Assembly: GCA_947593655.1 (NCBI GenBank)
Contig: CANQDS010000006.1
Span: forward strand, 1 to 52,413
Direction of reading: 5' to 3'
DNA length: 52,413 nt
From: an uncultured Lachnospiraceae bacterium
GTDB taxonomy: Bacteria > Bacillota > Clostridia > Lachnospirales > Lachnospiraceae
The translations under genes were made by a program, and so were the position numbers. Shown here piece by piece: positions 12,730-26,918 of the stretch (position 1 is the first letter of the stretch; each line of letters opens with the position of its first letter). The notes below the pieces were generated by a model that saw nothing but the letters and a program-made list of their open reading frames with translations, did no database searches and was not told where the DNA came from.

Positions 12730-13703
12730 CTCCTTAGTCTTTGAATTTGATATATCACTTTGGTAGGCAGATACATTTTCAACACAAGCTTAATTTTTTG
12801 CATAAACTGAGCTTCTTTAAAAGCTTTCTTATATTCGCCTTCTCTCACAATTCCAAATTTTGAACAAGAAATGATACTATACAAATGGTATTTTTTTAAC
12901 TGCCACAAACCCTTTTCATATTTGCAATCTGTAAATTGATTAACATCATCAAGCATAGCAATAATCTTTAGTTTTCGTTCCACAATTTTCGTCTTATCAT
13001 CTGATTTCCACCTTGTTGTAGCCGAATTAGGGACATTTGTCCTATAAACGCTCAAAGGTTCATTTATATAGTGTGCATACCCTTGTGATGTACACAACAG
13101 GCGCAGTTGTAAATCTCCGGTAGGACACGGTAAATAATGGTCTCGAAAATCATTACACATTTTTCTTGGAAAAACATAAGATGCAGTCGGTGCAAAGCTT
13201 ATCTCATATGCGTTATCTAAAGTATAGTCTTTATCGCAATACGGGAAATATTTAGCATCTTCTTTGCTGTTCGGAAGAAATAATTTGGTTTTACTTTTGT
13301 CCAACTGATTTTCTTCATATGCATTAGAAAAACATATAGTACACTCTTGGTGGGTTTCCATATAATCAATCTGTTTTTGCAGCTTATATTCATCAAGCCA
13401 ATAGTCATCACCTTCACATAATGCTATATATTTTCCGGAAGCAAATAAATATATCATATCCGCAAAAATTCTTCTTCCTTTTGAATATTGATTTTCTTTT
13501 TGATATATAGGCCGGATGATTTCTGGGTATTTTTGCTCATATTCACGAATGATTTCTGCTGTTCTATCTGTTGAGGCATCATCATGAATTATAATCTCAA
13601 AAGGAAAATCTGTCTTCTGCTTGATAAATCCATCCAATGCATCACGAATATATGCTTCGTGGTTATATGCTGCGCAACATATACTAACCATTACTTCATT
13701 CAT
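12726..13703 (-). CDS. Family 2 glycosyltransferase
   Basis: A cytosolic GT-A transferase of 325 residues. It opens with VSICCAAYNHEAYIRDALDG, has the nucleotide-sugar DxD-like IIIHDDASTDRTAEII, and the acceptor-side YIALCEGDDYWLDEYKLQKQ that is common in this GT2 group. It probably adds one sugar of the repeat unit on the inner membrane face. It sits between an acyltransferase and the flippase in visibly AT-rich DNA. Such AT-rich transferase genes are typically strain-specific and exchanged between strains. Sugar specificity cannot be told. Confidence 0.9.
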   Translation of the reverse strand: MNEVMVSICCAAYNHEAYIRDALDGFIKQKTDFPFEIIIHDDASTDRTAEIIREYEQKYPEIIRPIYQKENQYSKGRRIFADMIYLFASGKYIALCEGDDYWLDEYKLQKQIDYMETHQECTICFSNAYEENQLDKSKTKLFLPNSKEDAKYFPYCDKDYTLDNAYEISFAPTASYVFPRKMCNDFRDHYLPCPTGDLQLRLLCTSQGYAHYINEPLSVYRTNVPNSATTRWKSDDKTKIVERKLKIIAMLDDVNQFTDCKYEKGLWQLKKYHLYSIISCSKFGIVREGEYKKAFKEAQFMQKIKLVLKMYLPTKVIYQIQRLRR

Positions 13704-13720
13704 TATAATCCCCTCTTTCT

Positions 13721-14857
13721 TTATTTACTTGACAAAATTAAACAATTTCTGCATTTCAATAAAAATGAAATCATACAATCAATCATTTTCCCAACTAACT
13801 GCTCAACTTTCAGAATTTTAAACACTTTTACCCTCAACCACTCTATTCCAATTCCTATCAAATAAAAAAGCAATGTAATAATTGCTACTCCAGCCAACGT
13901 AGGCAGTATTCCATAAGGAATCAAGCGTATTAGATGTATATAATTCCACAATGGCATTCTGATATAAGGATTGTCGGTCAGCAAATACACCCCAAATGCC
14001 CCAGATGACAAATACAAAATATATTCCGAAACCTTCCTGCTTTTTATTTCTAATTTACGAAATGCTTTGAACATACAAATTGTTGCCAATACAACCGGAA
14101 TAGAATTGTATCGATAAAATACGCCTACTCCCCTTACTTGTCCCAACACTTCCTTTGTGACCACGCCGATGAATATTCTGCTTACCCCCCCCGCAACAGA
14201 AATGCATAACCAAGTAAGTATGTACTGCTTTACAGAAAGATTATTCTCAAACATTTTGCACATATTTGATGAATGAGTTTCACTAAGTTTAAGATAAGCC
14301 GCTATAACATATAGTGTAATAAACCATACGAAATCATTTCCTCTTGTTAAAACGGAACTGCTCCATGGAAAAAGTGTCGGTATCACAACAAATAATGCCA
14401 GTAATAAAAAAACCGTTCTTTTTAATTGTATATATTTCATAGATTGAATCAAATAATTCAAAATCGGCGATAAAATAATCAATACTACATAAGCACTTGC
14501 AAACCAGTATCTTCCGCTTGTGATTGGAAATATTCCCTTCACAAGATCTGCCAAACCAATAGGACGATGAAAACAAAATCGTGCCAATATCATTCCAAGA
14601 ATAGAATAAAATTCTACCTGCATAACGATATGGATAATACGGTTCCTCTTCATATGAGAATTTATTCCAAAATATCCGCTAATCATTACGAATAAATTAA
14701 CTGCAATATACGCCATAAACTCTATAATAGAAAAGAACCAACTTCCCACACTTCCGATTGCGTAGCCATCTAAAACACCACCATGACCAAGTGCATGAAG
14801 TACAATAACCATAAGCATAGCCATTATCCGCATTAATTCAAAATTTGATTTTCGCAT
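13721..14857 (-). CDS. Acyltransferase family 3, intact, with a G8 run
   Basis: A membrane acyltransferase of 378 residues, likely to acylate a repeat-unit sugar. The opening is NFELMRIMAMLMVIVLHALG with the family histidine, followed by NLFVMISGYFGINSHMKR and about ten hydrophobic segments. The coding strand has eight G at 14185-14192 (Val-Ala-Gly-Gly-Val) in a membrane segment, and the frame is open with eight. Gain or loss of one G would truncate the protein by more than a third, so if the run is unstable this copy is in the on state. RBS GAGAGG precedes the ATG. It follows the polymerase gene after a gap of about 115 nt. Confidence 0.9.
   Translation of the reverse strand: MRKSNFELMRIMAMLMVIVLHALGHGGVLDGYAIGSVGSWFFSIIEFMAYIAVNLFVMISGYFGINSHMKRNRIIHIVMQVEFYSILGMILARFCFHRPIGLADLVKGIFPITSGRYWFASAYVVLIILSPILNYLIQSMKYIQLKRTVFLLLALFVVIPTLFPWSSSVLTRGNDFVWFITLYVIAAYLKLSETHSSNMCKMFENNLSVKQYILTWLCISVAGGVSRIFIGVVTKEVLGQVRGVGVFYRYNSIPVVLATICMFKAFRKLEIKSRKVSEYILYLSSGAFGVYLLTDNPYIRMPLWNYIHLIRLIPYGILPTLAGVAIITLLFYLIGIGIEWLRVKVFKILKVEQLVGKMIDCMISFLLKCRNCLILSSK
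14185..14192 (-). repeat. G8 homopolymer run inside intact acyltransferase gene
   Basis: Eight C on the plus strand, so eight G in the coding strand. The frame is open at this length. Confidence 0.9.
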
Positions 14858-14972
14858 TATCCTATTTATTCCTCTCTAAATACAATACTTTCTTTACCCA
14901 AACATAATGTTAAAAATCCTATCTTACTGCATAAAACAGCTTTTTTTATCCATATATTTTCACTTTTGAAAA

Positions 14973-16133
14973 TCATGTGATAAAATATGCACTATATGCA
15001 GCCAAAAAAGTATAATTAAGATAAATGCACAAACTCATACAAGCCAGCAACACACCTATGCGTATTCCTTTCATTACTTTTATATTTATTTTATTATGCA
15101 CCCACATTTTCTTATCCACAATCCATGATACTAAAATTGGAGAAAGCGGGCCTAAAACATAAGCTGGTCGTAGCACCATATCGTAGTTTCCAAAATTTCC
15201 CAATATATAAATCATATATATTGTTAAAAAATTATATATAGCTTTTTTACCATTATCTTCTATATCCTTTGTTGTTTCATTTTCTAAAAAATGAATCGTC
15301 AAAAAAATAACTATTAATAGAAAAACCACATACAATGGGGCACGAGATGATCGATATTGTTCATCTGATGTATATGACAAGAACCTAGATCCTATCATTT
15401 GAAAAAATATATATTTCGAGTCAAGCATTAATTCGGCAATAGTACTCGATAGAAAACTAATTGCAAATAATATAATATATGCCTGTACTCTCCAATTTCT
15501 TTTTGCAACAAAAACAAATGGAATTACAATTAATCCTACTGGATGAACTGTGATAGCTAAAAATGCAAGAATAAAGAAAACCACAGTACGCTTTTTTTTA
15601 TATAAATAAAGATATACACCCAAAGCCAACAATGACGCACAAAATGCAGTACGAATATTTGATACTGCAAAAACATAAGGCAAAAAAGAAAAACACAAAA
15701 GTAATGAAAGAATATTTATTTTTCTGTTTTCTGTAAGCCAATCTACAAAAATATAACCAACACATACATAGTCAATAAACACGCACAGTGTACTCAACCA
15801 ACGGTTATTTTTTGTAATACTTATAATAACCCATCTTAAAAAATTGAATGTATATAAACCAACATATCCACCTCCGATAGAACTTTTCCCAAAAACAAAT
15901 TTCTGAAAGGAAATTCCTGATGTTCTGACTGACTCTATCCATATTTCATGTCTCACTAAATCCCAGCTGATAGGCGGATTAACATAATAAGCAAGGCACG
16001 AAAGCGATACCGCAAACAAAAAAAAGAGTAATTTCATTTGTTTATCTGATATTTTTATTCTTTTTGATAAGGCTACCAAAAAAATGAAAAGCAAAATAAA
16101 TATTATACTTATCAATCTCAATACATCTGCCAT
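14973..16133 (-). CDS. EpsG-like polysaccharide polymerase (Wzy)
   Basis: A membrane protein of about 386 residues with ten or more hydrophobic segments. The EpsG-like early outside loop reads YYVNPPISWDLVRHEIW, followed by a large loop and the repeated FAVSNIRTAFCASLLALGVY. The position between a Stealth transferase and a flippase fits the repeat-unit polymerase. I choose the ATG at 16133 because GGAG lies six nt before it; the ATG at 16145 lacks a site. The gene is strikingly AT-rich with long A and T runs, unlike the heptose genes upstream, so it was probably acquired as part of a serotype-specific block. Confidence 0.82.
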   Translation of the reverse strand: MADVLRLISIIFILLFIFLVALSKRIKISDKQMKLLFFLFAVSLSCLAYYVNPPISWDLVRHEIWIESVRTSGISFQKFVFGKSSIGGGYVGLYTFNFLRWVIISITKNNRWLSTLCVFIDYVCVGYIFVDWLTENRKINILSLLLCFSFLPYVFAVSNIRTAFCASLLALGVYLYLYKKKRTVVFFILAFLAITVHPVGLIVIPFVFVAKRNWRVQAYIILFAISFLSSTIAELMLDSKYIFFQMIGSRFLSYTSDEQYRSSRAPLYVVFLLIVIFLTIHFLENETTKDIEDNGKKAIYNFLTIYMIYILGNFGNYDMVLRPAYVLGPLSPILVSWIVDKKMWVHNKINIKVMKGIRIGVLLACMSLCIYLNYTFLAAYSAYFIT

Positions 16134-16172
16134 ATTTTTCTCCATTTTTTAATTTTTCTTAAAATTCTTACA

Positions 16173-17183
16173 TTAATCAATTTCAAATGAAGATTTCTCC
16201 GGCAAAATATTATTAAAGGCTCGAATAATCATTCTTTTGTTTTGTTCAAATTCCTGTTCATTCATTTCCCCATCATTAATTGCTATCATTTTACATCTTT
16301 GCCTTCTTATAAATTTGCAAACACTTTCAATAGAATCTTTATCCTTTTCAATAGAAAAACTTTTTCCCAATTTCGACGTACGATTTTCAAAATTTCCACT
16401 TACTAACTGCCAATTGCGAAATATCCACTGTGTATAATCCAATTTATTTCTGAATTTATGGGATGATGTATCATCTAATAATTCATATTCTTTTTCCCAT
16501 AATTCTGTGAAAGTGCTTTTTAAAAAAGAATTTGGCAAATGTGGTTGATAAATTCCAGGGAATCGTGGGCAGGGAAGGAGATAGATTGTTCGTAAAATAT
16601 ATTTTCCATTTAAAGGATGAAACCATTTTTTCCACTCCTTCTTGATTATTTTGTGAAAATCGAAATATTTATTTACGATTCCAATTGCCTGAAAAGCTGC
16701 ATAGTTAAAATCTCGGTTCATATCAAAACAATGAACATTTAAAGCGACAGAATCACACGGTTTTTCATTTTTAAAAAAATCTGTACATTTTGTTTCTGAT
16801 ATCAAAAAGGTATCATCATTAAAATACACAAATCTCTCACTTAATCCATCAATTCGATGCAAATTAATTTCCAACGGATTGCAGCTAAACGTTGGCAAAT
16901 ATTTTTCAGGCATAAAATCAGAATGCTTCACTATATGCAATTTAGGATGATAAATATTCATCCATTTAGGAATATGCCCCCATGTCACAAAATGTATTTT
17001 TCTGACCCACGGAGCAAATTTTTCCACTCCACGAAACCAATATTGAAGATTATCCCAATCTCGATATCTCTGACTTCGTGCATCTTCTTGTAATTGCGGC
17101 CGATATTTTGCTTTTTCTTTTTGCCATTCTGGATCATTTCCATCTACCCACAAAATCACAAAATCAATCCCTTGATTTTCCAT
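16173..17183 (-). CDS. Stealth-family capsule phosphotransferase
   Basis: A 336-residue protein of the Stealth family, which transfers sugar-1-phosphates and so makes phosphodiester-linked capsule. The conserved regions are in order: IDFVILWVDGNDPEW (CR1), RDWDNLQYWFRGVEKFAPWV with IHFVTWGHIPKW (CR2), FVYFNDDTFL, and HLPNSFLKS (CR3). The start at 17183 is used because GGTGGGGAT lies just upstream; the longer open frame has no site. It is the first gene downstream of the IS110 scar and may need its own promoter. It predicts a phosphate bridge in the repeat unit. Confidence 0.9.
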   Translation of the reverse strand: MENQGIDFVILWVDGNDPEWQKEKAKYRPQLQEDARSQRYRDWDNLQYWFRGVEKFAPWVRKIHFVTWGHIPKWMNIYHPKLHIVKHSDFMPEKYLPTFSCNPLEINLHRIDGLSERFVYFNDDTFLISETKCTDFFKNEKPCDSVALNVHCFDMNRDFNYAAFQAIGIVNKYFDFHKIIKKEWKKWFHPLNGKYILRTIYLLPCPRFPGIYQPHLPNSFLKSTFTELWEKEYELLDDTSSHKFRNKLDYTQWIFRNWQLVSGNFENRTSKLGKSFSIEKDKDSIESVCKFIRRQRCKMIAINDGEMNEQEFEQNKRMIIRAFNNILPEKSSFEID

Positions 17184-17280
17184 GTTTATCCCCACCTTTC
17201 TGCAAAGACACCAATGAATCATGAAACTGGTACACTGACCTTTCACTATCTAATTTATTTGCCCCCTGATATTATTTTCT

Positions 17281-17494
17281 TATAAGACTGACACACTACA
17301 GAACGCGTGGATGTGAGTGACGGAGCTGTATAGCGGTGCCCCGTATGTTTATATGTTGCCGATCATCCGTTAAGACGTCAATGAGTGGCGCATAACAGTA
17401 ACCCGTAAACTATCTTTTCCGAAGTCAACTTAATCTCGCCGGATGGATCAGTCACTGTCAGTTTTATAACTATGAAAAGTCAGGAGGCAGTTAC
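17281..17494 (+). other. Possible left-end non-coding region of the IS110 remnant
   Basis: About 210 nt with no gene, upstream of the decayed IS110 transposase. In the IS110 group this stretch encodes the bridge RNA that guides the recombinase. Here it is not AT-rich like the flanking gene and looks structured (for example GGTGCCCCG), but I cannot verify folding or the exact IS end. Confidence 0.3.
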
Positions 17495-18099
17495 TTGTCA
17501 TTTAAAATTTTGGAATTTAACTGCTGTGGACTCGATATCCACACAACCTGAATTTATGCCTGTATCGGTATGACTGATTCCAACAATCGTACTAAGTATA
17601 AGTATAAGTAAGCCTGCTTTTCTTCTTTATATGGAAAGGCTGAATGAGCTATGTAACTGGCTTGCAAAATACAACTATAAGGATGTTTGCATGGAATCTA
17701 CCGATAAGTACTGGATCACTGTTTTCAATATCTTAGGGCAACATGAAATATGGGTTACTCTCTCATCCCAAATACACAAAACCGATGAAAGGAAACAAAA
17801 CCGATCGTAAAGATTCCAAGCGGATCTGCGATCTATATATGTGTAACATGGTCAGTCCCTCTTTTATTCCGTCTGCTGATATCAAAAAACTAAGAGATCT
17901 CGTAAGATACCGATATAAACTCACCTGTATGATTACCGCTGGAAAGAATCGTGGCGCGGTCACAAGAAAGCCATCATACAATTCGTCATATGATCCTGAC
18001 CGCTATCTGGCATATACTTTCAATTCCTCCCTTTGAGCAAAGAAAAACACTTGTCACTTCACAGGCACTTAATCTACTTAGACAACGAAGTTATCATTA
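17495..18099 (+). mobile_element. Decayed IS110-family transposase with internal deletion
   Basis: On the plus strand, opposite to all neighbours. Starting from a TTG at 17495 behind AGGAGG, it reads NCCGLDIHTT, then a stop, then IYACIGMTDSNN. After a shift come LNELCNWLAKYNYKDVCMES and, after another, HPKYTKPMKGNKTDRKDSKR with LRDLVRYRYKLTCMITAGKN. These are the N-terminal DEDD domain of IS110 transposases. The sequence then jumps directly to RHMILTAIWHILSIPP and a C-terminal end at 18099, so the middle, including the serine domain, is deleted. There are several stops and frameshifts. It is a dead copy lying between the heptose genes and the AT-rich block. Confidence 0.85.
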
Positions 18100-18216
18100 A
18101 AGATGATCCTTTGCCTGCTTCTTGATTAGGTATTGCGCGAATATTCAATTTTTGTTCACCACATGATGGCTTATTTGTAATATTCAATTTTATACTCTAT
18201 CCGCTACCTCTTAGTT
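18100..18216. other. Non-coding spacer next to the IS110 scar
   Basis: No gene seen. It contains a 13-bp direct repeat (AATATTCAATTTT at about 18140 and 18178) of unknown meaning. Confidence 0.4.
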
Positions 18217-18804
18217 CTAAACTTCTCGTCCTTCTATCTCCCTTTTTCCCAATTCTTCTTTCAGCACCCGATACATCATGTGGTCAAAACTCATATGGAT
18301 ATCCTCCGCGATCTGCATATCATTGACTCCCGCGTGCATGTGGTAATCCGCAAGTTTCCGCAGTTTTCCTCCATCATATCCTGTAATTCCAAGCACCCTG
18401 CACCCAATTTCTTTTGCATAATTCACTGCCCGGATGACATTTTCTGAATTCCCGCTTCCTGAGATCGCAATCACAAGATCGTCTGCTTTTAATTTTCCTT
18501 TCATCTGATATGAGAATATTTCATCATATGAAATATCATTGGCAACTGCCATCATGGTAGGCACATTGTCATTCAGGCAGACCATACGGAACTTTTTGTC
18601 CAGCTCCCCGCTGATACCCTTATTGAAATCGCAGCAGAAATGGGAGGCTGTAGCCGCGCTTCCGCCATTCCCAAATACATATATCACTGCCTCTCTCTCA
18701 TAGGCATCTTTGATAGCGGATACTGCCCTGCTGATCTCGTCAAAATCCATCCCCCGCACTGCCGAAATCTCCTGCTTGTAATATTCCATTATTTTTTCCT
18801 TCAT
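18217..18804 (-). CDS. gmhA: Sedoheptulose 7-phosphate isomerase (SIS domain)
   Basis: A 195-residue SIS-domain protein that converts sedoheptulose 7-phosphate to D-glycero-D-manno-heptose 7-phosphate. Key segments are IYVFGNGGSAATASHFCCDF near residue 42, LVIAISGSGNSENVIRAVNY, and DIHMSFDHMMYRVLKE near the end with the metal or catalytic histidines. The start at 18804 follows AAAGGAG; the longer frame has no site and overlaps the upstream gene. It is the last gene of a four-step heptose set transcribed from the right, and ends just before the IS110 scar. Confidence 0.9.
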   Translation of the reverse strand: MKEKIMEYYKQEISAVRGMDFDEISRAVSAIKDAYEREAVIYVFGNGGSAATASHFCCDFNKGISGELDKKFRMVCLNDNVPTMMAVANDISYDEIFSYQMKGKLKADDLVIAISGSGNSENVIRAVNYAKEIGCRVLGITGYDGGKLRKLADYHMHAGVNDMQIAEDIHMSFDHMMYRVLKEELGKREIEGREV

Positions 18805-18833
18805 CAATGTATCTCCTTTCCAGATCTTGCTGT

Positions 18834-20138
18834 TCAGGCTTCCCCTTCCCTGCGGAGGATCATCTCCACAGCCTCCAGAAGGTCTGCAGCCGTCACTTCC
18901 GGGCATGCCGCATATTTAGAAAATTTATCTTCCTCCCCGGTCATCACCAGCGCGGTATGGAGCCCGGCATTCAGGCCGGCCTGTATGTCCGTCCCGGTAT
19001 CTCCGATGATCCAGGAATCCTCCAGGCTGATATGGAAGTCCTCCGCCGCCCGCTCGATGAGCCCGGTTCCCGGCTTCCGGCACCTGCAGGGGATCTTCAG
19101 CTCCTCCACTTCTCCTTCAAATCCTTTGTCCGGATGGTGGGGGCAGAAATAAATCCCGTCGACATATCCGCCCTCCTTCCCCAGCAGCGTTTCCATTTTT
19201 TTATGGATATCCTCTAATTCTTCCTCTGTAACCTCGCCCCTGGCTATGACCGGCTGGTTGGTAATGACAACTGCCAGATATCCCGATCCGTTGATCCGTT
19301 TCACGGCTTCCGCCGCATTCTCCTCCAGTTCAAATTCTTCCGGCTTCCGCAGGAAACCGATATAACGGTTGATGGTTCCATCCCTGTCAAGAAAAATAGC
19401 CTTCTGCTTTTCTCTTAGATTTCGCTTTTGAGGAAGATTATTTACCAAATCCTCCCTGACCGACTGAAGTCTTTCCGGCGTCCCGATATCCTTAACATAT
19501 TCCGGACTCTGGTAAGCGAAAACCTGTCCCCCGCCAATTGCCGGCTGGACAAAATCTTTTTCCATATCGGCAGTCTGCAGTCCTTCCAGCCTGTTTAAAG
19601 ATTTCTTTGATAGGATATATAATCCTGCATTTACGAGATTCCGATAGTTTTTCTCCCTTTTGCCGTTTTTGCTGTTCCATCCAATCACGCAGCCGTTAGA
19701 ATTTATTTCAATTAAATCACTATCATACGGATGCGAATTGGGATGCGCGAACAGGGTAATCTCAGCCCCCTTTTCCTTGTGGAAATCCAGAAAACGCTTA
19801 AAATCCACGGAAAAAAACAGGTCCCCGAATACAAGGATGAAATCTTCCTCCAGCCTGTCCGCAAGATGGCGCAGTGCCCCTGCCGTCCCCAGCGGGACTG
19901 CTTCTTCAAAATAGGAAATGCTGACGTTTAGACGCTTTCCATCCTGAAAATAACCCTTAATAACATCTTTCTGATATCCAACCACCATAATGATTTCCGT
20001 AATGCCGTTTTCCTTCAGGTTTTCAACCTGGCATTCCAGTAGCGGTTTCCCGTTAACCGGCATCATCGGCTTTGGTATATTTTCTGCTATCCGGGAAAGC
20101 CTTGTTCCTTTCCCTCCTGCCATGACTACTGCCTGCAA
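18834..20138 (-). CDS. Fusion: heptose-1-phosphate nucleotidyltransferase and heptose bisphosphate phosphatase
   Basis: A two-domain protein of 434 residues. Residues 1-235 are a sugar nucleotidyltransferase (VVMAGGKGTRLSRI, IPKPMMPVNGKPLLE, LVFGDLFFSVDF), like HddC. Residues about 245-430 are a GmhB-type HAD phosphatase: IFLDRDGTINRY, VVITNQPVIARGE, the zinc-binding FCPHHPDKG with CRCRKPGTG, and IIGDTGTDIQAG. It would remove the 1- or 7-phosphate from heptose bisphosphate and then make the nucleotide-heptose. The start is a TTG at 20138 behind GGAGG; this gives the conserved MQAVVMAGGKG and overlaps the epimerase gene by about 13 nt. Confidence 0.9.
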   Translation of the reverse strand: MQAVVMAGGKGTRLSRIAENIPKPMMPVNGKPLLECQVENLKENGITEIIMVVGYQKDVIKGYFQDGKRLNVSISYFEEAVPLGTAGALRHLADRLEEDFILVFGDLFFSVDFKRFLDFHKEKGAEITLFAHPNSHPYDSDLIEINSNGCVIGWNSKNGKREKNYRNLVNAGLYILSKKSLNRLEGLQTADMEKDFVQPAIGGGQVFAYQSPEYVKDIGTPERLQSVREDLVNNLPQKRNLREKQKAIFLDRDGTINRYIGFLRKPEEFELEENAAEAVKRINGSGYLAVVITNQPVIARGEVTEEELEDIHKKMETLLGKEGGYVDGIYFCPHHPDKGFEGEVEELKIPCRCRKPGTGLIERAAEDFHISLEDSWIIGDTGTDIQAGLNAGLHTALVMTGEEDKFSKYAACPEVTAADLLEAVEMILRREGEA

Positions 20139-21106
20139 TCTTCATCCTCCCGCCCATCCGCGATTGATGGTTTTATGCTTTTCAGGGTTGCCTTTACCGC
20201 CTCCCTGGAACTGCGCGGCGGCTCCCAGCCCGCCGCGCGGATCTTGGAAAGATCATACTGGAAGGAAGGCACATCCCCTTTCCAGCCGCTCCTCCCGCCC
20301 GTATAGGCATACCGCACGTCCTTCAGCCCGAGCCTCTCGCAGGTGAGGTCTGCAATTTCCTTCACGGTGGTTGCCGTATCGGTGCCGATATTAAAAATTT
20401 CCATCCCCCTGCGTTCCCGGAAGGAAAAATCCGCGATCGCGTCAACAAGATCCAGCACGTAAAGATACGGCTTGCGCTGCGTCCCGTCGCCGAGGATCTC
20501 CAGTTCCTCCGGATTCTTTTCCAGCTTGCCGATGAAATCATGGACCACCCCGTGCGTCAGCCCCGGCCCGATCACATTGGGGAACCGGAACACGAGCGTC
20601 TCAAAATCATTCATATGCGTATAGGCGGAAAGGAACGCCTCCGACGCAAGCTTCGCGCCTCCGTAATACGACACCGGGGCAAGCCCGCCGGCATCCTCCG
20701 CCAGCTTTTCCCCTTCCTTTTCCCCGTAGACAGCCGAGGTGGACGCAAAGAAGAGCTTTTTCACCCCCGTCCGGCGCATGGCTTCGGCAACCGAATAAGT
20801 CGTCCGGAACGTCTTCTCGTAATCAATTCCGGGGCAGCGCGCGCTCATCCGGATGTCCGAATTGGCCGCCAGATGGTAGATCCGGCTGATTCCATATTTG
20901 TTTATCAGGTTCTCGAGCATGCCGGGATCCCCCGCATCCTGTTCAATCAGCGTAAACCTCCCGCACCCAAGGCAGTCTCTGACATTTTCTTTTGATCCAA
21001 GCGTAAAATCGTCTACCGCAACCACTTTATGCCCGTCTGCCAAAAGCCTGGCTGTTAAATGCGAGCCGATAAACCCGGCTCCCCCCGTAACCAAAATATT
21101 TTCCAT
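20126..21106 (-). CDS. NAD-dependent nucleotide-sugar epimerase/dehydratase
   Basis: An extended short-chain dehydrogenase of about 326 residues. The N-terminal NAD site is ILVTGGAGFIGSHL, followed by VAVDDF, HLAANSDI, FFASTSAVYGE and the catalytic YYGGAK. FRFPNVIGPG and the C-terminal sugar-side segments follow. The ATG at 21106 is preceded by GGAGG; the longer frame is not coding. It lies between the heptose kinase and the heptose nucleotidyltransferase, so it may act on nucleotide-heptose, though it could equally make another capsule sugar. Confidence 0.9.
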   Translation of the reverse strand: MENILVTGGAGFIGSHLTARLLADGHKVVAVDDFTLGSKENVRDCLGCGRFTLIEQDAGDPGMLENLINKYGISRIYHLAANSDIRMSARCPGIDYEKTFRTTYSVAEAMRRTGVKKLFFASTSAVYGEKEGEKLAEDAGGLAPVSYYGGAKLASEAFLSAYTHMNDFETLVFRFPNVIGPGLTHGVVHDFIGKLEKNPEELEILGDGTQRKPYLYVLDLVDAIADFSFRERRGMEIFNIGTDTATTVKEIADLTCERLGLKDVRYAYTGGRSGWKGDVPSFQYDLSKIRAAGWEPPRSSREAVKATLKSIKPSIADGREDEDCRQ

Positions 21107-21149
21107 CCGCCTGTCCTCCGTTCCATATATTCTTTCCGTTCTGGGGCCT

Positions 21150-22142
21150 TTACCAGATGATGTCCGGCTTTTCCCCGACATAAATGACCGTGCTTCCCTG
21201 CCTGTCAAATCTGACAGGCATCTGCGGCAGGCCGACAGCTTCCCTGACCTGCTTCTGTTTTTCCTCCCGGACATAGAACAGCAGAAATCCGCCTCCCCCT
21301 GCCCCGAGAAGCTTTCCTCCAACAGCACCATTTTTTATTGCTGCCTGGTAAGCCGCATCCACTGCAGGGTTTGTTATGCCTGATGCCAGCGTTTTTTTCA
21401 GCATCCAGCCCTGATGCAGGATTTCCCCCATGGCATCTATATTGCCGTCCTGCAGCGCATCCTTCAATCCGCAGGCCAGTCCGCACATCTTAAGCTGGTT
21501 TTTCTCTTTTTCCCCCTCAGCAACATTTTTTACCTGTTCCTTTAATATTTCCGAAGCGGAATGGAGCTTTCCCGTATAAAACATCATCAGCCGGCCTTCC
21601 AGCGTCTTCCGCGCTTCCTCTTCCATAATGACCGGCTCAACCGCAACGCTGCCGTCCTTCCGGAACTCGATAAAATTCAGCCCGCCGTATGCCGCTGCAT
21701 ACTGGTCCTGTTTCCCGATCGGGTTCCCCAGGTCGCGTATCTCTATCTCGCATGCTTCCGAGGCAAGGCGCTCTTTCGATGCGAACTTCCCTTGATACGC
21801 ATAAAGGCTGTGCAGGACGCCGACCGTAAAGGAGGAAGAGCTCCCGAGCCCCGTCCCCGCCGGGACGTCCGCCGTGGACACGATCTCCACGCCCCGCACC
21901 CCCATGCGCGTTAATATTTCCCGGAAATACCTGTGCCCGATGCCGCCGGTATCCTCCACGTCTTCCGTCTTTGAATACTTCAGCACCGTCCGGTCCGAAT
22001 GGAAACCCGGATGCACCGAAATATACATGTATTTATCAATTGCCGTGCTGAGCACGCATCCCCCGTGCTTCCTGTAAAAGGAAGCGATGTCGCTCCCGCC
22101 GCCCGCAAAACTGATCCGGAACGGCGTCCTTGTGATGATCAT
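21150..22142 (-). CDS. hddA: GHMP kinase, D-glycero-D-manno-heptose 7-phosphate kinase-like
   Basis: A 330-residue GHMP-superfamily kinase. It begins ITRTPFRISFAGGGSDIASF, typical of HddA/FKP-like sugar kinases. The ATP loop is VPAGTGLGSSSSFTVGV, followed by GKQDQYAAAYGGLNFIEF and a C-terminal KLLGAGGGGFLLFY. It would phosphorylate heptose 7-phosphate at C1 to give heptose 1,7-bisphosphate. Its ATG overlaps the stop of the upstream glycosyltransferase (ATGA). With GmhA and the HddC-GmhB fusion it gives a complete nucleotide-heptose route. Confidence 0.9.
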   Translation of the reverse strand: MIITRTPFRISFAGGGSDIASFYRKHGGCVLSTAIDKYMYISVHPGFHSDRTVLKYSKTEDVEDTGGIGHRYFREILTRMGVRGVEIVSTADVPAGTGLGSSSSFTVGVLHSLYAYQGKFASKERLASEACEIEIRDLGNPIGKQDQYAAAYGGLNFIEFRKDGSVAVEPVIMEEEARKTLEGRLMMFYTGKLHSASEILKEQVKNVAEGEKEKNQLKMCGLACGLKDALQDGNIDAMGEILHQGWMLKKTLASGITNPAVDAAYQAAIKNGAVGGKLLGAGGGGFLLFYVREEKQKQVREAVGLPQMPVRFDRQGSTVIYVGEKPDIIW

Positions 22143-23035
22143 TCCCCTGCCCCTTTCCTTTTTCCCGTCCTGCCCCGCCCGTTCTCGCGGTCATACATTT
22201 TCCGCACCGCGCCTTTCGGCGCCAGGAAGAACGCTCCCGCCGCGGCCGCTGACAGGCAGGAATGCAGCAGGTGCCTCCGGCTGAAGTTCTTCCACCGGAC
22301 TCCTGCCATATAGGAAGCCTGCTTCTTCCCCGTCCTCTTATCCGCGAAATTCCCGGAAACGCGGTATGCAAGCACTTTGTCCGGCAGATTCGCAATGCGG
22401 TGGGAGTGGTTCATGATCCGCAGCCACAGATCCAGGTCCTCGGACATTTCCAGCGATTCATCGTAGGAAAAGCCTTCCTCCACCAGTTCCCGGCGCATCA
22501 TGACCGCGGGGTGGGCCAGCGGATTCCTGACTGCGGAGAAGAAGAAGAGCTTCCCCCCTCCCAGCGGATATTTCCTTTCGGATACCACCCTCCCAGACTC
22601 ATCGATGATGTCAACCTGCCCGCCCAGCACGTAAACATCCTTATGCCGTTCCAGGTAAGAGGCTTCTTTTTCCAGGCGCTCCGGAAGAGAGATGTCGTCC
22701 CCGTCCATCCGTGCAATATAAGCCCCCCTGGCCTCATGCAGCCCGAGGTTTAAAGCGTGCGCAAACCCCATCCGTTCTTTTTCCCGGATGACCTTTACGC
22801 GGCCGTCGCCCGCAAACAGATCAACCGCTTCCCGGGTTGCCCCATCGGTGCTGTCGTCATAAATAAGCAGTTCGAAATTCTGATAGGTCTGATCCATAAT
22901 GCTCTGTATGGACGTCCGAACCACTGCAGGAGGCTCATTGCATACGGCCATTACGACGGAAACCAGGCTTTCTCCCCCGCAGACAGCTTCATTTTTCTGT
23001 TTATCATGCTCCCGTTTTCCAGCCATTTGCTCCAT
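22139..23035 (-). CDS. Family 2 glycosyltransferase
   Basis: A GT-A transferase of 298 residues: VSVVMAVCNEPPAVVRTSIQ, LLIYDDSTDGAT, YIARMDGDDISLPERLEKE and MSEDLDLWLRIMNHS. The C-terminus is basic, with a short hydrophobic patch (LSAAAAGAFFLAP). It directly follows the initiating transferase and so may add the second sugar, possibly heptose. About 29 residues before VSVVMAV are polar and not family-typical, so the true start could be slightly downstream. Confidence 0.88.
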   Translation of the reverse strand: MEQMAGKREHDKQKNEAVCGGESLVSVVMAVCNEPPAVVRTSIQSIMDQTYQNFELLIYDDSTDGATREAVDLFAGDGRVKVIREKERMGFAHALNLGLHEARGAYIARMDGDDISLPERLEKEASYLERHKDVYVLGGQVDIIDESGRVVSERKYPLGGGKLFFFSAVRNPLAHPAVMMRRELVEEGFSYDESLEMSEDLDLWLRIMNHSHRIANLPDKVLAYRVSGNFADKRTGKKQASYMAGVRWKNFSRRHLLHSCLSAAAAGAFFLAPKGAVRKMYDRENGRGRTGKRKGAGE

Positions 23036-23048
23036 CCTCCTGCAGATG

Positions 23049-24479
23049 TCATGTATTTTCCGCCGTCACATCCCGGACGGCTGTTTCCTTTTCCGCAGTA
23101 TCTTCCATCCCTTTGCACCGGTACGCTTCCATCGCGCTCACCTGCCCCTCCCGGATCCCTTCCGTGCTCTTCTCCGAGGTGAACAGCACCACCCTTACCG
23201 TCTCGAACAGGATCTTGAAATCCTCCGCAAGGCTGGGGTTCGCGATGTACATCAGATCCATCTGCAGCTTGTCATACGGTTCCGTGTTATACTTCCCATA
23301 CACCTGTGCATACCCGGTCAGCCCCGCCTTTGCCTGCAGCCGCAGGGAAAACTCCGGCAGTTCCTTTTCATACTGCGCTGCAATCTCCGGGCGTTCCGGT
23401 CGCGGGCCTACGAGCGACATATCACCTTTTAGAATATTAATAAGTTGTGGCAGTTCATCAATCCGTACTTTACGGATGAATCGTCCTACCGATGTAACTC
23501 GACTATCATTTTCACCGCTGGAAAGGCGGGCAATCCCATCTTTTTCCGCATCTACACGCATACTTCGAAATTTTAGTACTTTAAATTTTTTCCCATCTTT
23601 TGTCAGTCTACATTGGCGGTAGAAAACCGGCCCTTTATCCGTAAGATGAATCGCAGCCGCAGTAACCAGCATAATTGGAGAAAGAAGAAGCAATGCCATC
23701 CCAGACACCAGAATATCAATCATTCGTTTTGCAAACAAATATTCTACGGACGGATGATACCGGCCGGTCTGCAACATCGGCAGATGAAACATATGCAGAT
23801 GCTTTGCGCCGCTCATCAGGACATCTCCGATCCGCGGAATAACAAACACTTCGATCCGGTGTTCCACACAGTATTTCAGGATAATGTTCCGTTCATGGCT
23901 ATGGATTCCGCTTAAGAACACGGCATCATTCTTATCCAGCATCCCGATCTTCTGCAGACATTCTTCCACGCGAGCAGTCTGACGAATACAGAACTTTTTT
24001 TCTAATCCATATTCTTCGACCAATTTTTCCAATCCGGAACGCTGATCATAAATAACGGTTGCAGCCATTGGCGGATGTGTTAAAAAATACCATTTATGCG
24101 CTGATAGCGCCCAGATGCCCGCAAGAACAATCTCCATAGCAAATGCAGCCAACAGCGGTAACGGATTCGGCAGATGCTTCATCAAAAGCCAGATCACAAC
24201 GTACATAACACAGTTGGTCATAAATGCCGCAAGTCCCTGACTGCACACTATATCTGGCACACGATTTAAAGAAATTCGAAATCCATCATACATCCTGCCG
24301 TAAATGATATAAACAAACAAAAACAAGAGTACTACCAGATAATTTCCCTTCCTGAAAAACGGGGAAAAAGTTCTTGTCGCATAATATCCATACCAGCAGA
24401 GAAAAAAAGGAACTGTAAGAAGCAGGGCATCCAGTCCTTTGACAATTCTTACCCTGACATCACGCCCGATATTTTCCAC
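23049..24479 (-). CDS. Initiating polyprenyl-phosphate sugar-1-phosphate transferase (WbaP/WcaJ-like)
   Basis: A 476-residue bacterial sugar transferase that starts repeat-unit assembly on undecaprenyl phosphate. It has four N-terminal hydrophobic segments and a CoA-binding-like middle domain. The C-terminal catalytic domain reads AKRMIDILVSGMALLLLSPI, GPVFYRQCRLTKDGK, FKVLKFRSMRVDAEKDG, VRIDELPQLINILKGDMSLV, GPRPERPE and LTGYAQVYGKYNTEPYDK. The start is a GTG at 24479 behind GGAGG. There is a 60-nt gap to the helicase gene with a stem-loop but no T run, so read-through from upstream is likely. Confidence 0.93.
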   Translation of the reverse strand: MENIGRDVRVRIVKGLDALLLTVPFFLCWYGYYATRTFSPFFRKGNYLVVLLFLFVYIIYGRMYDGFRISLNRVPDIVCSQGLAAFMTNCVMYVVIWLLMKHLPNPLPLLAAFAMEIVLAGIWALSAHKWYFLTHPPMAATVIYDQRSGLEKLVEEYGLEKKFCIRQTARVEECLQKIGMLDKNDAVFLSGIHSHERNIILKYCVEHRIEVFVIPRIGDVLMSGAKHLHMFHLPMLQTGRYHPSVEYLFAKRMIDILVSGMALLLLSPIMLVTAAAIHLTDKGPVFYRQCRLTKDGKKFKVLKFRSMRVDAEKDGIARLSSGENDSRVTSVGRFIRKVRIDELPQLINILKGDMSLVGPRPERPEIAAQYEKELPEFSLRLQAKAGLTGYAQVYGKYNTEPYDKLQMDLMYIANPSLAEDFKILFETVRVVLFTSEKSTEGIREGQVSAMEAYRCKGMEDTAEKETAVRDVTAENT

Positions 24480-24539: not shown

Positions 24540-26444
24540 TTACCCCCACTGCATCCCGATATTCTCCAGCCTCCGGATACACGTCTCGCTCAACGGAGCC
24601 GCGCCCGGTTTTTTCCCGGCGTAGATCCTGCGCTGGTTCGCGATCCAAAGTCCGAGCGTAAGACCGTCCTCGGTCCGGTAATTTCTCGGAACAAGCAGAT
24701 TCCCATAGGTATCAAAATATTTTTCCGCCGCCCGGAAACTGCGCTCCCACTGGCTTTCATGCTTATCCCATACCATGCCGATCGCATCCAGCTGTGCCTT
24801 CTGTTCCTGACTGATATTGCGGTTCTGCCGGAGATTGCTAACCCACTTTCCCAGCGGAAAACCATCCTGCGTAACATACTTTGCCTTCACTTCCGCATCC
24901 CCGTATTGGAGCACGTAATCTTTCAGTTTCTCATAACCGCGCCTGAATTTCCGCTGCGGTCCGCTCTCCCACTCCATGCCGATCGCATCCAAACGCCGGA
25001 TCTGCTCTTCATCCAGCCTGCCCGCCGCCTTTCCCTGACGCACCCGCCGCTGTGTCTGCAGCCAGATTCCAACGGCCAGCCCGTCCCGCGAAGTATAGGA
25101 ATTTGCGATCTGTAAATTTCCATGAGTTTTATAGTAGCTTTCGGCCTCCCGATAATAAACTTCCCAGGCGGCGGAAAGATTGCGGTTCAATTGACCAAAT
25201 AATTCCCGGCAGTTTTTCATTTCATCATAAATATGAAACCGCCCGAAAAAACTTTCTTTCTCTGTCTTTGTGTAATCCAGTGCGGCAAATGCCTCCGCAA
25301 TTTCTTTTTCCAGAGAACAAATGGAGTACAGATTATCAAAATTATTTACAATATCAAAAATAACCGGTGCTCTGTCCCCATCCTTCTTTCCTGCCGTCAG
25401 GCTCCTTCCGATCTGCTGCAGATACAACGCAGGGGATACGGTCGGCCGCAGTAAGATCACGCCGTCCAAACCTTCTACATGAATCCCTTCGTTCAGCATA
25501 TCGATACAGAAAAGAAGTTTTAAATGGCCGCTTTTGTCCTTTTTAAACTGCTCGAACTCACGGCTTGTCTCCGGGCTGTCATATACCGCCTTGTAAACAT
25601 GGGGTGCCTTGTCCACCAGATGAAACCATTCACCGGCTTTCTGCGCCATCTCCTCCATATGCGATTTCCCGGAACAAAAAACAAGGTATCTTCCGCCACG
25701 CCCCGTTTCATCGGAAAAATCAGACGCAGGCATATGTTTTTGAAAAACAACATCCAGCCCGTCCGCCTGTTCCAACGCACGCCGAAGCTCCTCCAAAAGC
25801 CTTTCGTTTTCTTTCTCCAGACCCGCATTCTTTGCATTATGCACACGTTCCGCCAGTTTCTTCCACTCCTCCTGATAAGAATACATGGAAACCACGTACT
25901 CCGGTGCCGGAAGAATCTCCTTTGCAATTGCTTCGCCAAGTTTCATTTCAGAAGCAATGCACCCGTCGAACAGTTCCTGCGCCATATCGCGCTGTCCGTC
26001 CAGATAACGGATGTTTGTTGCGGAAAGTCCCAGCAGTCCGGCTTTTGGGCAGGCGTTGATCAGTTTCCTTACGCTCTTTCCCCATTCTGCCGCCCCGCAG
26101 CGGTGGAATTCATCCAAAACGATGTAATCCGGTTTCATCTCCGCAAACTCGCTTTCATGAAGCATCAGGGCGGAATAGGTGCAGAAACGGATATGGGAAA
26201 GTATCCTGCCGCTCTGCTCCCCGGTAAGCACTTCCCGCAGATTCTCCGTCTGCGTCTGAAAAATGTACGCGCTCGGCGCAAGCCAGAGAATACTGCTCTG
26301 CGGATGTTCCTCCGCCAGCTTAAACGCGATAAAAGACTTTCCCGTCCCCGTCGGATGGATGACAGCCGCCTTTCCTGTTTTTTCCAGCATTTTTCTGACT
26401 GACTCATACGCTTTCTGGTTGTGCTGATAGAGATTAAGACACAT
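24540..26444 (-). CDS. SF2 DEAD/DEAH-like helicase with three helicase-associated (HA) repeats
   Basis: A 634-residue protein. The N-terminal SF2 domains show Walker A HPTGTGKSFIAFKL near residue 35, DEFHRCGAAEWG for motif II, LGLSATNIRY for motif III, LFCIDMLNEGIHVEGLDGVI and LQQIGRSLTAG for motifs V and VI. From about residue 430 there are three repeats of roughly 65 residues, each ending like LDAIGMEW, LDAIGMVW and LENIGMQWG. These are helicase-associated domains of unknown function found in many gut bacterial helicases. The gene is the first one behind the putative invertible promoter and lies 60 nt ahead of the capsule-initiating transferase. Whether it acts on capsule expression, mobile DNA or defence is unknown. 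Confidence 0.88.
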   Translation of the reverse strand: MCLNLYQHNQKAYESVRKMLEKTGKAAVIHPTGTGKSFIAFKLAEEHPQSSILWLAPSAYIFQTQTENLREVLTGEQSGRILSHIRFCTYSALMLHESEFAEMKPDYIVLDEFHRCGAAEWGKSVRKLINACPKAGLLGLSATNIRYLDGQRDMAQELFDGCIASEMKLGEAIAKEILPAPEYVVSMYSYQEEWKKLAERVHNAKNAGLEKENERLLEELRRALEQADGLDVVFQKHMPASDFSDETGRGGRYLVFCSGKSHMEEMAQKAGEWFHLVDKAPHVYKAVYDSPETSREFEQFKKDKSGHLKLLFCIDMLNEGIHVEGLDGVILLRPTVSPALYLQQIGRSLTAGKKDGDRAPVIFDIVNNFDNLYSICSLEKEIAEAFAALDYTKTEKESFFGRFHIYDEMKNCRELFGQLNRNLSAAWEVYYREAESYYKTHGNLQIANSYTSRDGLAVGIWLQTQRRVRQGKAAGRLDEEQIRRLDAIGMEWESGPQRKFRRGYEKLKDYVLQYGDAEVKAKYVTQDGFPLGKWVSNLRQNRNISQEQKAQLDAIGMVWDKHESQWERSFRAAEKYFDTYGNLLVPRNYRTEDGLTLGLWIANQRRIYAGKKPGAAPLSETCIRRLENIGMQWG

Positions 26445-26469
26445 AAAGACTTTACCCGCTCCGCATGAA

Positions 26470-26500
26470 ATTTCGTGAAATTATGGATTTCACGAAATTC
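26470..26500. repeat. 31-bp inverted repeat, left copy
   Basis: An exact reverse complement of 26834-26864. It is internally palindromic, so it would fold as a 12-bp hairpin in the leader of the helicase mRNA. Confidence 0.92.
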
Positions 26501-26537
26501 AATTCATGGTCATAAATGCAATTTTTATTCAAATGTT

Positions 26538-26566
26538 AGTCTAACTGTTTATAAAAACCTTGTCAA
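26538..26566 (-). promoter_or_regulatory. Sigma-A-type promoter inside the invertible segment
   Basis: On the minus strand TTGACA (26566-26561), a 17-nt spacer, then TAGACT (26543-26538). Transcription would start near 26531 and run through the left 31-bp repeat into the helicase gene at 26444. Confidence 0.65.
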
Positions 26567-26698
26567 GACTTTTTCTGAAAAACCACAAAGTGTCAATATT
26601 TCCACCTTTTTCTAATGCCGCTATAGTAAGAATGTACAAAAATGATGTCTGAATCCGCTGAGAGTGGTCAGGAAAAGTGGTCAAACCACGGCAGAGGA

Positions 26699-26727
26699 AT
26701 GGCGCAGATTTTCATAGTCTGCGCCAT
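26699..26727. other. Perfect 10-bp stem-loop in the invertible segment
   Basis: ATGGCGCAGA and TCTGCGCCAT around a 9-nt loop. There is no T run on either side, so it is not a typical terminator. Confidence 0.6.
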
Positions 26728-26761
26728 GTGTTTTCCGATGCCAGACCGTTCTCATGAAATA

Positions 26762-26786
26762 TTTTGACAATTTATTGTGGTCAAAA
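26762..26786. promoter_or_regulatory. Operator-like inverted repeat
   Basis: TTTTGAC and GTCAAAA separated by 11 nt. TGGTCA-like copies also occur near 26665, 26678, 26778 and 26790. A regulator is not identified. Confidence 0.35.
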
Positions 26787-26833
26787 TGTTGGTCAAATCA
26801 TTTGAAAATCCTTATTTTACGTCATTTCCGGCG

Positions 26834-26864
26834 GAATTTCGTGAAATCCATAATTTCACGAAAT
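26834..26864. repeat. 31-bp inverted repeat, right copy
   Basis: An exact reverse complement of 26470-26500, placed just after the terminator of the GH30 gene. Confidence 0.92.
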
Positions 26865-26875
26865 ATTTTTTATAT

Positions 26876-26907
26876 TCAAAAAGGACGTCCGGCACAGGAA
26901 CGCCCTT
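26876..26907 (-). terminator. Intrinsic terminator of the GH30/sugar operon
   Basis: On the minus strand AAGGGCGT pairs with ACGTCCTT (one G-T pair), followed by TTTTT. It lies 12 nt after the GH30 stop and insulates the segment to its left. Confidence 0.75.
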
Positions 26908-26918
26908 CTTTCCCCTGA

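What the first reader, a model, noticed from the sequence alone, without database searches (positions are those of the whole stretch)
26470..26864. Likely invertible promoter in front of the helicase and capsule genes
Two perfect 31-bp repeats, each palindromic with an asymmetric centre, lie in opposite orientation around 333 bp of non-coding DNA that carries TTGACA-17-TAGACT pointing at the locus. This is the layout of phase-variable inverted promoters known for Bacteroides capsules. Here it precedes a helicase gene and, 60 nt after it, the capsule-initiating transferase, with no T-run terminator between. The GH30 terminator at 26876-26907 shields it from upstream transcription. The on/off reading is inference.
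Basis: partly seen in the sequence, partly recalled or inferred. Interest (0 to 1): 0.85.

Follow-up and report, generated by a model that had tools for sequence, protein, structure and literature searches.

The report
Invertible capsule promoter missing its recombinase
A short DNA segment in front of a surface-sugar (capsule-type) gene cluster of a gut-type bacterium is built like a flip switch for that cluster; the closest relative found carries a flipping enzyme inside the same segment, whereas this copy has lost most of that gene and its promoter points at the cluster.

Summary
The reading as an invertible promoter is well supported, with a twist. In the closest relative found, the same place in front of a 75%-identical helicase holds a 31-bp inverted repeat enclosing a tyrosine recombinase gene. 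The window cassette is a cut-down version: it keeps both palindromic sites, an outward promoter and TGGTCA pairs, but only shreds of the recombinase. In this bacterial family 25 of 38 such helicase genes have a perfect repeat of at least 18 bp within 130 nt (0 of 381 control positions), and 21 of 29 cassettes carry an outward promoter at one end (2.1% in controls): 5 point at the helicase, the window included, 16 away. One genome holds two cassettes with the same site in opposite orientations. The layout is that of the Salmonella Hin switch (recalled), with a tyrosine recombinase and a linked helicase. Whether the window copy still flips is unknown: no matching recombinase was found in this 87%-complete genome, and no reads were available.

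The parts
26470..26500 (+). helicase-side recombination site: palindrome ATTTCGTGAAAT-TATGG-ATTTCACGAAAT plus TC
   Evidence: same site class flanks the recombinase gene in L008
26834..26864 (-). far recombination site, perfect reverse complement of the first
26538..26566 (-). outward promoter TTGACA-17-TAGACT pointing at the helicase; its -35 starts 66 bp from the inner end of the helicase-side site
   Evidence: matching position (67 bp) and kind in L072, and similar promoters in other cassettes
26665..26683 (+). direct pair TGGTCA-N7-TGGTCA, likely arm-type recombinase (or regulator) site; same 13-bp spacing as in L072
   Evidence: function inferred
26778..26795 (+). second direct pair TGGTCA-N6-TGGTCA, inside the remnant of the recombinase C-terminus; 12-bp spacing as in L072
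   Evidence: function inferred
26704..26757 (+). recombinase remnant ADFHSLRHVFSDARPFS-stop (box II HxLRHxF)
   Evidence: motif found 6 times in 20,000 Markov shuffles over six frames
26758..26805 (+). recombinase C-terminal remnant NILTIYCGQNVGQII-stop
   Evidence: compare VNYGQTVGQAALITA-stop (L008) and SSIYGQYAGQTVPNDL-stop (L019)
24540..26444 (-). HA-repeat DEAD/DEAH-type helicase, first gene behind the switch; its relatives often stand behind such cassettes
23049..24479 (-). polyprenyl glycosylphosphotransferase (PF02397; TIGR03025 above cut-off), initiating enzyme of the polysaccharide
11242..23035 (-). further surface-polysaccharide genes (glycosyltransferases, GHMP kinase, epimerase, SIS, NTP transferase/HAD, Stealth, EpsG, acyltransferase, flippase)
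26876..26907 (-). hairpin with T-run behind the GH30-like gene, probably insulating the switch from upstream transcription
   Evidence: fold; not listed by the scan

Best explanation
The segment 26470-26864 is a phase-switch cassette: a promoter between two inverted tyrosine-recombinase sites, standing in front of a helicase-headed surface-polysaccharide operon. In the form that I take as ancestral, present in relatives, the recombinase gene lies inside the segment and a promoter next to its start points the other way, out of the cassette. Recombination between the two palindromic sites would turn the segment round: with the recombinase gene facing away from the helicase, the promoter reads into helicase and polysaccharide genes (ON); with it facing the helicase, the promoter reads outward (OFF). 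Shown: layout, homology, both orientations among related loci, remnants of the recombinase. Inferred: that promoters and recombinases are active and that the segment flips. In the window the recombinase gene has been reduced to shreds, so the copy is either locked ON or flipped by a recombinase from elsewhere.
For: Exact, unique repeat. L008/G056: 31-bp perfect repeat enclosing a 377-aa tyrosine recombinase (PF00589) directly upstream of a helicase 75% identical to the window's over the 373 residues on that contig. Window left half matches the region upstream of that recombinase: score 85 against 38.7 +/- 6.0, maximum 57.2 in 300 shuffles, 43.4 against the reverse strand. Recombinase remnants in the right order and strand. 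Three full family members in the same genome each lie between palindromic repeats of their own. 25 of 38 helicase genes have a perfect repeat of 18 bp or more ending within 130 nt (24 of 36, 1 of 2 more); controls 0 of 381. Outward promoter in 21 of 29 cassettes against 2.1% in Markov controls; 5 ON, 16 OFF, 8 uncalled. Recombinase against helicase direction: 11 same, 4 opposite of 15. G427 has two cassettes with the same 21-bp site in opposite orientations.
Against: No read data; inversion within one strain was not observed. The window's own recombinase is dead, and no recombinase tied to a TTTCGTGAAAT site was found in its genome, though the assembly is 87% complete. The right half of the cassette does not align significantly as DNA (56.1 against shuffle maximum 58.6, and 51.0 against the reverse strand). 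13 of 38 helicase genes miss the threshold: two have 16-bp repeats, three a repeat 153-235 nt away, one a repeat 315 nt away, seven none. One of 15 recombinases next to helicases (L127) shows no perfect repeat of 14 bp or more, and in another (L111) the match runs 53 nt past the inner end of the arm. Promoters are consensus matches, the rule was set, and 8 of 29 cassettes give no call, among them the closest relative L072, whose promoter scores 9, one below the threshold. Control anchors are arbitrary positions, not gene starts.
Confidence: 0.87

Rival explanations
1. Frozen relic (a sub-case of the best explanation): the cassette once flipped, but loss of the recombinase has locked it ON; it now works as an ordinary promoter.
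For: Recombinase shreds only; no second TTTCGTGAAAT-class site in the genome; the three full family members found there are tied to CGCAGA-type sites. G055 has what looks like the next stage: a single site between a promoter and the helicase (L091), and no family recombinase at E 1e-25. Two genomes with mini-cassettes, G191 and G313, likewise have no family recombinase at that cut-off.
Against: Both sites are still perfect over 31 bp, and both TGGTCA pairs and the promoter are kept, although a recent deletion would look the same. In other genomes with mini-cassettes (G086, G234, G323, G424) a family recombinase exists that is not enclosed in an exact repeat of 13 bp or more within the 1.5 kb examined on each side.
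Confidence: 0.45
2. Mini-inverton flipped in trans (the other sub-case) by a recombinase encoded elsewhere, like the Bacteroides Mpi set-up.
For: Family mini-cassettes with intact sites, two in G234 and two in G323 (L108, L118; L103, L117); family recombinases outside a cassette in such genomes.
Against: No recombinase with the matching site found in G000, about 13% of which may be missing. G191 and G313 have mini-cassettes but no family recombinase at E 1e-25. In 7 of 7 loci no repeat with the mini-cassette's own site encloses the recombinase, so enzyme-site pairing was not shown.
Confidence: 0.4
3. MITE or other transposable element with terminal inverted repeats.
For: Inverted ends around a short middle without an intact gene.
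Against: One copy in the genome; of 61 congeners one matches, with the site alone; each end is a complete palindromic core site; in relatives a tyrosine recombinase is enclosed and the position is in front of helicase genes.
Confidence: 0.03
4. Regulatory RNA or riboswitch-like leader: the plus strand between the repeats folds well (z -5.3).
For: two terminator-like hairpins on the plus strand.
Against: Rfam gave one hit, a snoRNA at E 0.94 and far below gathering score. The plus strand reads away from the polysaccharide genes.
Confidence: 0.04

Closest known systems
Salmonella Hin flagellar switch (layout recalled; passages of the review PMC11868660 seen name Hin as a serine recombinase at hix sites)
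   Same: Recombinase gene inside the invertible segment, with an outward promoter that drives the neighbouring operon in one orientation only.
   Different: Hin is a serine recombinase with an enhancer; here a tyrosine recombinase, palindromic core sites, polysaccharide targets and a helicase as first gene. The window copy has lost the enzyme.
Bacteroides fragilis capsule promoters inverted by Mpi (recalled; references to it seen)
   Same: Invertible promoters in front of several surface-polysaccharide loci of one genome; locus headed by a non-enzymatic gene; invertible segments without recombinase.
   Different: Mpi is a serine recombinase acting in trans; loci start with UpxY/UpxZ, not with a helicase; other host phylum.
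Inverton group 139 with invertase group 35 in Clostridia (PMC11892184; section 8 read, passages)
   Same: Clostridial invertons statistically tied to tyrosine-type recombinases; flipping followed in reads.
   Different: The paper counts a recombinase as proximal if it intersects or lies within 5 kb of the inverton, so some may be enclosed; the text seen does not say. The two group 139 examples quoted span about 255 bp each. The word helicase does not occur in the main text. Their site motif is in a supplement that could not be opened, so identity of the groups is untested.
fim switch of E. coli (FimB/FimE; layout recalled)
   Same: Tyrosine recombinases inverting a promoter; weak similarity of the L008 recombinase to tyrosine-type DNA invertase models (33 bits, cut-off 221).
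   Different: fim recombinase genes lie outside the invertible element (recalled); different sites.

Membership tests
Invertible promoter (inverton) | promoter between two inverted recombination sites in front of a gene | tested here: met
   promoter by consensus and position only
Invertible promoter (inverton) | both orientations occur | tested here: inconclusive
   both among related cassettes of different loci and genomes; not within one strain, no reads
Self-inverting tyrosine-recombinase cassette (family described here) | tyrosine recombinase gene between the sites | tested here: not met
   the window keeps remnants only. Met in 13 of 15 recombinase genes next to helicases; in L111 the match overruns an arm, in L127 no perfect repeat. 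The window is a derivative, not a full member
Self-inverting tyrosine-recombinase cassette (family described here) | palindromic core sites, outward promoter at 50-120 bp, TGGTCA pairs, helicase gene behind | tested here: met
   TGGTCA pairs were tabulated for 16 genus cassettes only and are not perfect in all
Salmonella Hin type (DNA invertase) | serine recombinase | tested here: not met
   the L008 enzyme is PF00589 tyrosine recombinase
Bacteroides Mpi/Upx capsule switches | UpxY/UpxZ at the head of the locus and serine invertase Mpi | tested here: not met
   helicase heads the locus; enzyme of the related cassette is PF00589
Inverton group 139 / invertase group 35 | IR motif of group 139 | not testable with these tools
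MITE | multiple dispersed copies | tested here: not met

The most novel reading that the evidence does not exclude
A family of Hin-like but tyrosine-recombinase phase switches in Lachnospiraceae-type bacteria works together with a dedicated HA-repeat helicase: each switch turns on its helicase first, and the helicase (HA repeats reading nucleic acid, plus a motor) acts as the locus-specific or cross-locus regulator that lets one polysaccharide locus dominate, as UpxY/UpxZ do in Bacteroides. Recombinase loss turns autonomous cassettes into trans-dependent mini-cassettes such as this one.
Probability: 0.3. Interest if true: 0.85.

Novelty: new variant of a known kind. Interest (0 to 1): 0.7.

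Why it matters
Phase variation of surface sugars is best known in Bacteroides. Here a different enzyme class, layout and first gene appear to do the same job in another bacterial lineage, with several loci in some genomes, visible in assemblies and easy to test with reads. The window shows an intermediate between an autonomous switch and a promoter without its enzyme, which makes the origin of recombinase-less invertons testable. The link to an uncharacterised helicase is a new handle on how such loci are controlled.

Tried and rejected
MITE: rejected on copy number. RNA element: Rfam gave one far-below-threshold hit in 26000-27400; the good fold of the plus strand stays unexplained. Alternative promoter on the plus strand (TTTCCA-17-TATAGT, 9 of 12): weaker, and a promoter in that direction is not called in 10 of 16 genus cassettes. 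DNA alignment of the right half to the recombinase gene was not significant; the claim of remnants rests on the translated motifs and a motif control of 6 hits in 20,000 shuffles. The site pattern with at most 2 mismatches, in 397 genomes of the family, hit only this genome, so the site letters are not shared widely; the family is recognised by layout and proteins. The global alignment was too gappy to use (its score, 216.7, did exceed 200 shuffles, maximum 204). PADLOC and NCBIfam gave no match of the helicase that fits a named system.

Literature: nine searches, of which four returned no paper; judged from titles and abstract openings, none of the listed papers is about recombinase-enclosing invertons with helicases in Lachnospiraceae. 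Only the held open-access library was searched. Two papers were opened in part: PMC11892184 (section 8 and passages) and PMC11868660 (passages).

Rows dropped: helicase hits without an N-terminus (L057, L063, L064, L069, L070, L071, L009; L095 and L097 were not scored); five of 41 loci with under 900 bp upstream (L101, L104, L120, L124, L054); one hit with an N-terminus (G234:C87) got no locus and was not examined. L066 is the same gene as L096 and is counted once. Relatives were sought almost only within the window's own family; the one wider scan works by short peptide patterns and finds close relatives only. L068 and L056 are not among the 29 cassettes.

Full report
Observation. The 31-bp inverted repeat is real and exact: 26470-26500 and 26834-26864, 100% complementary, 333 bp apart, each arm a palindrome with an asymmetric 5-nt centre. 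It is the only perfect inverted repeat of 16 bp or more with arms 60-3000 bp apart in the window, the motif does not arise in 100 shuffles, and the genome assembly holds only these two copies. The minus-strand TTGACA-17-TAGACT is there and points at the helicase. Downstream lie an HA-repeat DEAD/ResIII helicase and the initiating sugar transferase, then glycosyltransferases, a GHMP kinase, an epimerase, an NTP transferase/HAD protein, a SIS protein, a Stealth protein, EpsG, an acyltransferase and a flippase: a surface-polysaccharide locus.

The closest relative gives the key. One pattern-based scan of the genome collection for the helicase found a relative 75% identical over 373 residues in an uncultured Lachnospiraceae bacterium (L008, which is G056:C7 of the genus set); the only other hit was a 22%-identical protein. 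Directly upstream of that helicase lies a 31-bp perfect inverted repeat of the same site class, but around 1330 bp that hold a 377-aa tyrosine recombinase. The left half of the window cassette matches the region upstream of that recombinase (score 85, shuffles 38.7 +/- 6.0, maximum 57.2 of 300). The right half is not significant as DNA (56.1 against a maximum of 58.6), but in one frame it reads ADFHSLRHVFSDARPFS-stop-NILTIYCGQNVGQII-stop, matching box II (NFHVLRHTFATN) and the C-terminal end (VNYGQTVGQAALITA-stop) of the recombinase, in the same order and strand; HxLRHxF turns up 6 times in 20,000 Markov shuffles over all six frames. The rest of the gene, including the parts that should hold the catalytic arginine, lysine and tyrosine (assigned from general knowledge of the family), is gone.

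A family of such cassettes. The window's own genome holds three further full recombinases of the family (43-50% identity to the L008 protein) and one partial one; each full one lies between palindromic repeats of its own, with arms of the type TTTCGCAGA (one site in C135 has one mismatch). In 62 genomes of the genus, 19 have the recombinase (E at most 1e-40) and 10 the helicase (E at most 1e-20); they lie side by side at six loci. In 397 genomes drawn from the family, 18 have the helicase at E at most 1e-60. Of 36 helicase genes (the window's included) with an N-terminus and at least 900 bp upstream, 24 have a perfect inverted repeat of at least 18 bp ending within 130 nt of the gene; none of 381 control anchors does (the anchors are arbitrary positions in 17 of the fetched sequences, away from cassettes). 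Two further genes add one hit and one 16-bp near miss, so 25 of 38. Longer fetches show repeats of 21-22 bp at 153-235 nt for three of the misses and one of 20 bp at 315 nt. Seven have none by these rules: L091 (a single site), L094, L106, L112, L113, L114, L115; L112-L114 are more distant helicases (35-40% identity). Where a recombinase stands next to a helicase, it lies wholly between the repeats in 13 of 15 loci; in L111 the match runs 53 nt past the inner end of the arm, and L127 shows no perfect repeat.

The promoter. By one rule (17-bp spacer, at least 10 of 12 matches, -35 starting 50-120 bp from an end of the cassette), set after seeing, 21 of 29 cassettes carry an outward promoter, at one end only, against 2.1% in Markov controls: 10 of 14 recombinase-bearing and 11 of 15 mini-cassettes. 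In the 10 recombinase-bearing ones it lies at the end where the recombinase starts and points away from it. The window's promoter has its -35 66 bp from the site, L072's 67 bp, the latter one match short of the rule. Promoter towards helicase: window, L074, L081, L121, L128 (5); away: 16; no call: 8. Recombinase and helicase point the same way in 11 and opposite ways in 4 of 15 loci. In G427 two cassettes with the same 21-bp site are in opposite orientations (L126, L128). This is what a two-way switch would leave in assemblies, though it is not an observation of inversion in one strain.

Cis and trans versions. Besides recombinase-enclosing cassettes, 15 of the 29 are mini-cassettes without recombinase, 114-518 bp between the arms with one of 874. 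Of 12 genomes searched for the recombinase, 9 have it at E 1e-25; G055, G191 and G313 do not. Seven of those loci were examined: in G086, G234, G323, G424, G431 (a partial match) and G061 (its second recombinase) no exact repeat of 13 bp or more encloses the gene within the 1.5 kb flanks, in G424 a mini-cassette lies beside it, and in G359 only a 13-bp repeat encloses it. So loss of the enzyme from the cassette need not end switching, but a pairing of stand-alone enzyme and site was not shown. For the window, no recombinase tied to its site class was found in an 87%-complete assembly, and I leave 'locked ON' and 'flipped in trans' about even.

The helicase. It resembles restriction-type and RadD-like helicases only at a distance (NCBIfam matches far below cut-offs, PADLOC matches partial; best solved chain E 4e-15). 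A sugar transferase match begins within 850 bp behind it in 8 of 11 loci with at least 1300 bp downstream; the exceptions are L112, L113 and L124. The link to the switches suggests that it belongs to the control of these loci; what it does is a guess.

Comparison. The layout is that of the Salmonella Hin switch (recalled; review passages) with another enzyme class; the role is that of Bacteroides capsule switches. The nearest printed statement that I found is the clostridial inverton group 139 with invertase group 35 (PMC11892184, section 8 read), where recombinases that intersect or lie within 5 kb of an inverton were counted and flipping was seen in reads; whether these are the same family could not be tested. 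I therefore call it a new variant of a known kind.

On rereading the calls I mended the statements on recombinase enclosure (one search added), on what group 139 counted as proximal, on mini-cassette sizes, and on genomes without a recombinase.

Noticed in passing
L077:5289-6710 (-) and L078:1524-2897 (+): In two congeneric genomes (G051, G052) the gene right beside a recombinase cassette encodes a TnpB/Cas12f-like protein (PF07282 zinc domain; 246 of 473 aligned positions identical). By eye the RuvC acidic residues seem replaced, as in nuclease-dead TnpB-like repressors (recalled), and a similar non-coding stretch follows both genes (no Rfam match). A phase-switched RNA-guided repressor is possible.
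   Followed up: partly
L091:6350-6760 (G055:C3): A single palindromic site of the window's class (TTTCGTGAATTTGCTTATTTCACGAAA) between a TTGACT-17-TATAAT promoter (by eye) and the helicase; no inverted partner of 14 bp or more in 3 kb upstream. It looks like a switch collapsed to a fixed promoter.
   Followed up: partly
L007 / G056:C40:11771-11797: A further site of this class 23 bp from a contig end in G056; contig ends at such sites would fit mixed orientations in the sample.
   Followed up: no
L019:10651-11301 (G000:C5): The second helicase-headed polysaccharide locus of this genome also has a NusG-family gene (PF02357) behind the sugar transferase, possibly a LoaP-type antiterminator (recalled).
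   Followed up: no
window 26630-26833 (+): The plus strand of the cassette folds far better than shuffles (-66.9 against -46.9 +/- 3.8 kcal/mol), partly from a hairpin at 26699-26727 whose right arm is recombinase coding remnant.
   Followed up: partly
L020, L021, L022 (G000 C135, C137, C117): Further cassettes (C117 partial) with no helicase match on these contigs; two (C135, C117) have long extra palindromes, ACATACAGGCATCGTAC, around the outer site. Their target genes were not identified (one search gave nothing for L021:1-552).
   Followed up: no
L080:7413-8285, L086:7293-8600, L089:4655-5677: Recombinase cassettes of the same family also stand beside genes for a sortase, a DUF4910 protein and an FHA protein, so the switch may serve more than polysaccharides.
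   Followed up: no
L081:6386-7558 (G011:C48): The recombinase of an ON-oriented cassette carries one in-frame stop, perhaps another enzyme on its way to loss.
   Followed up: no
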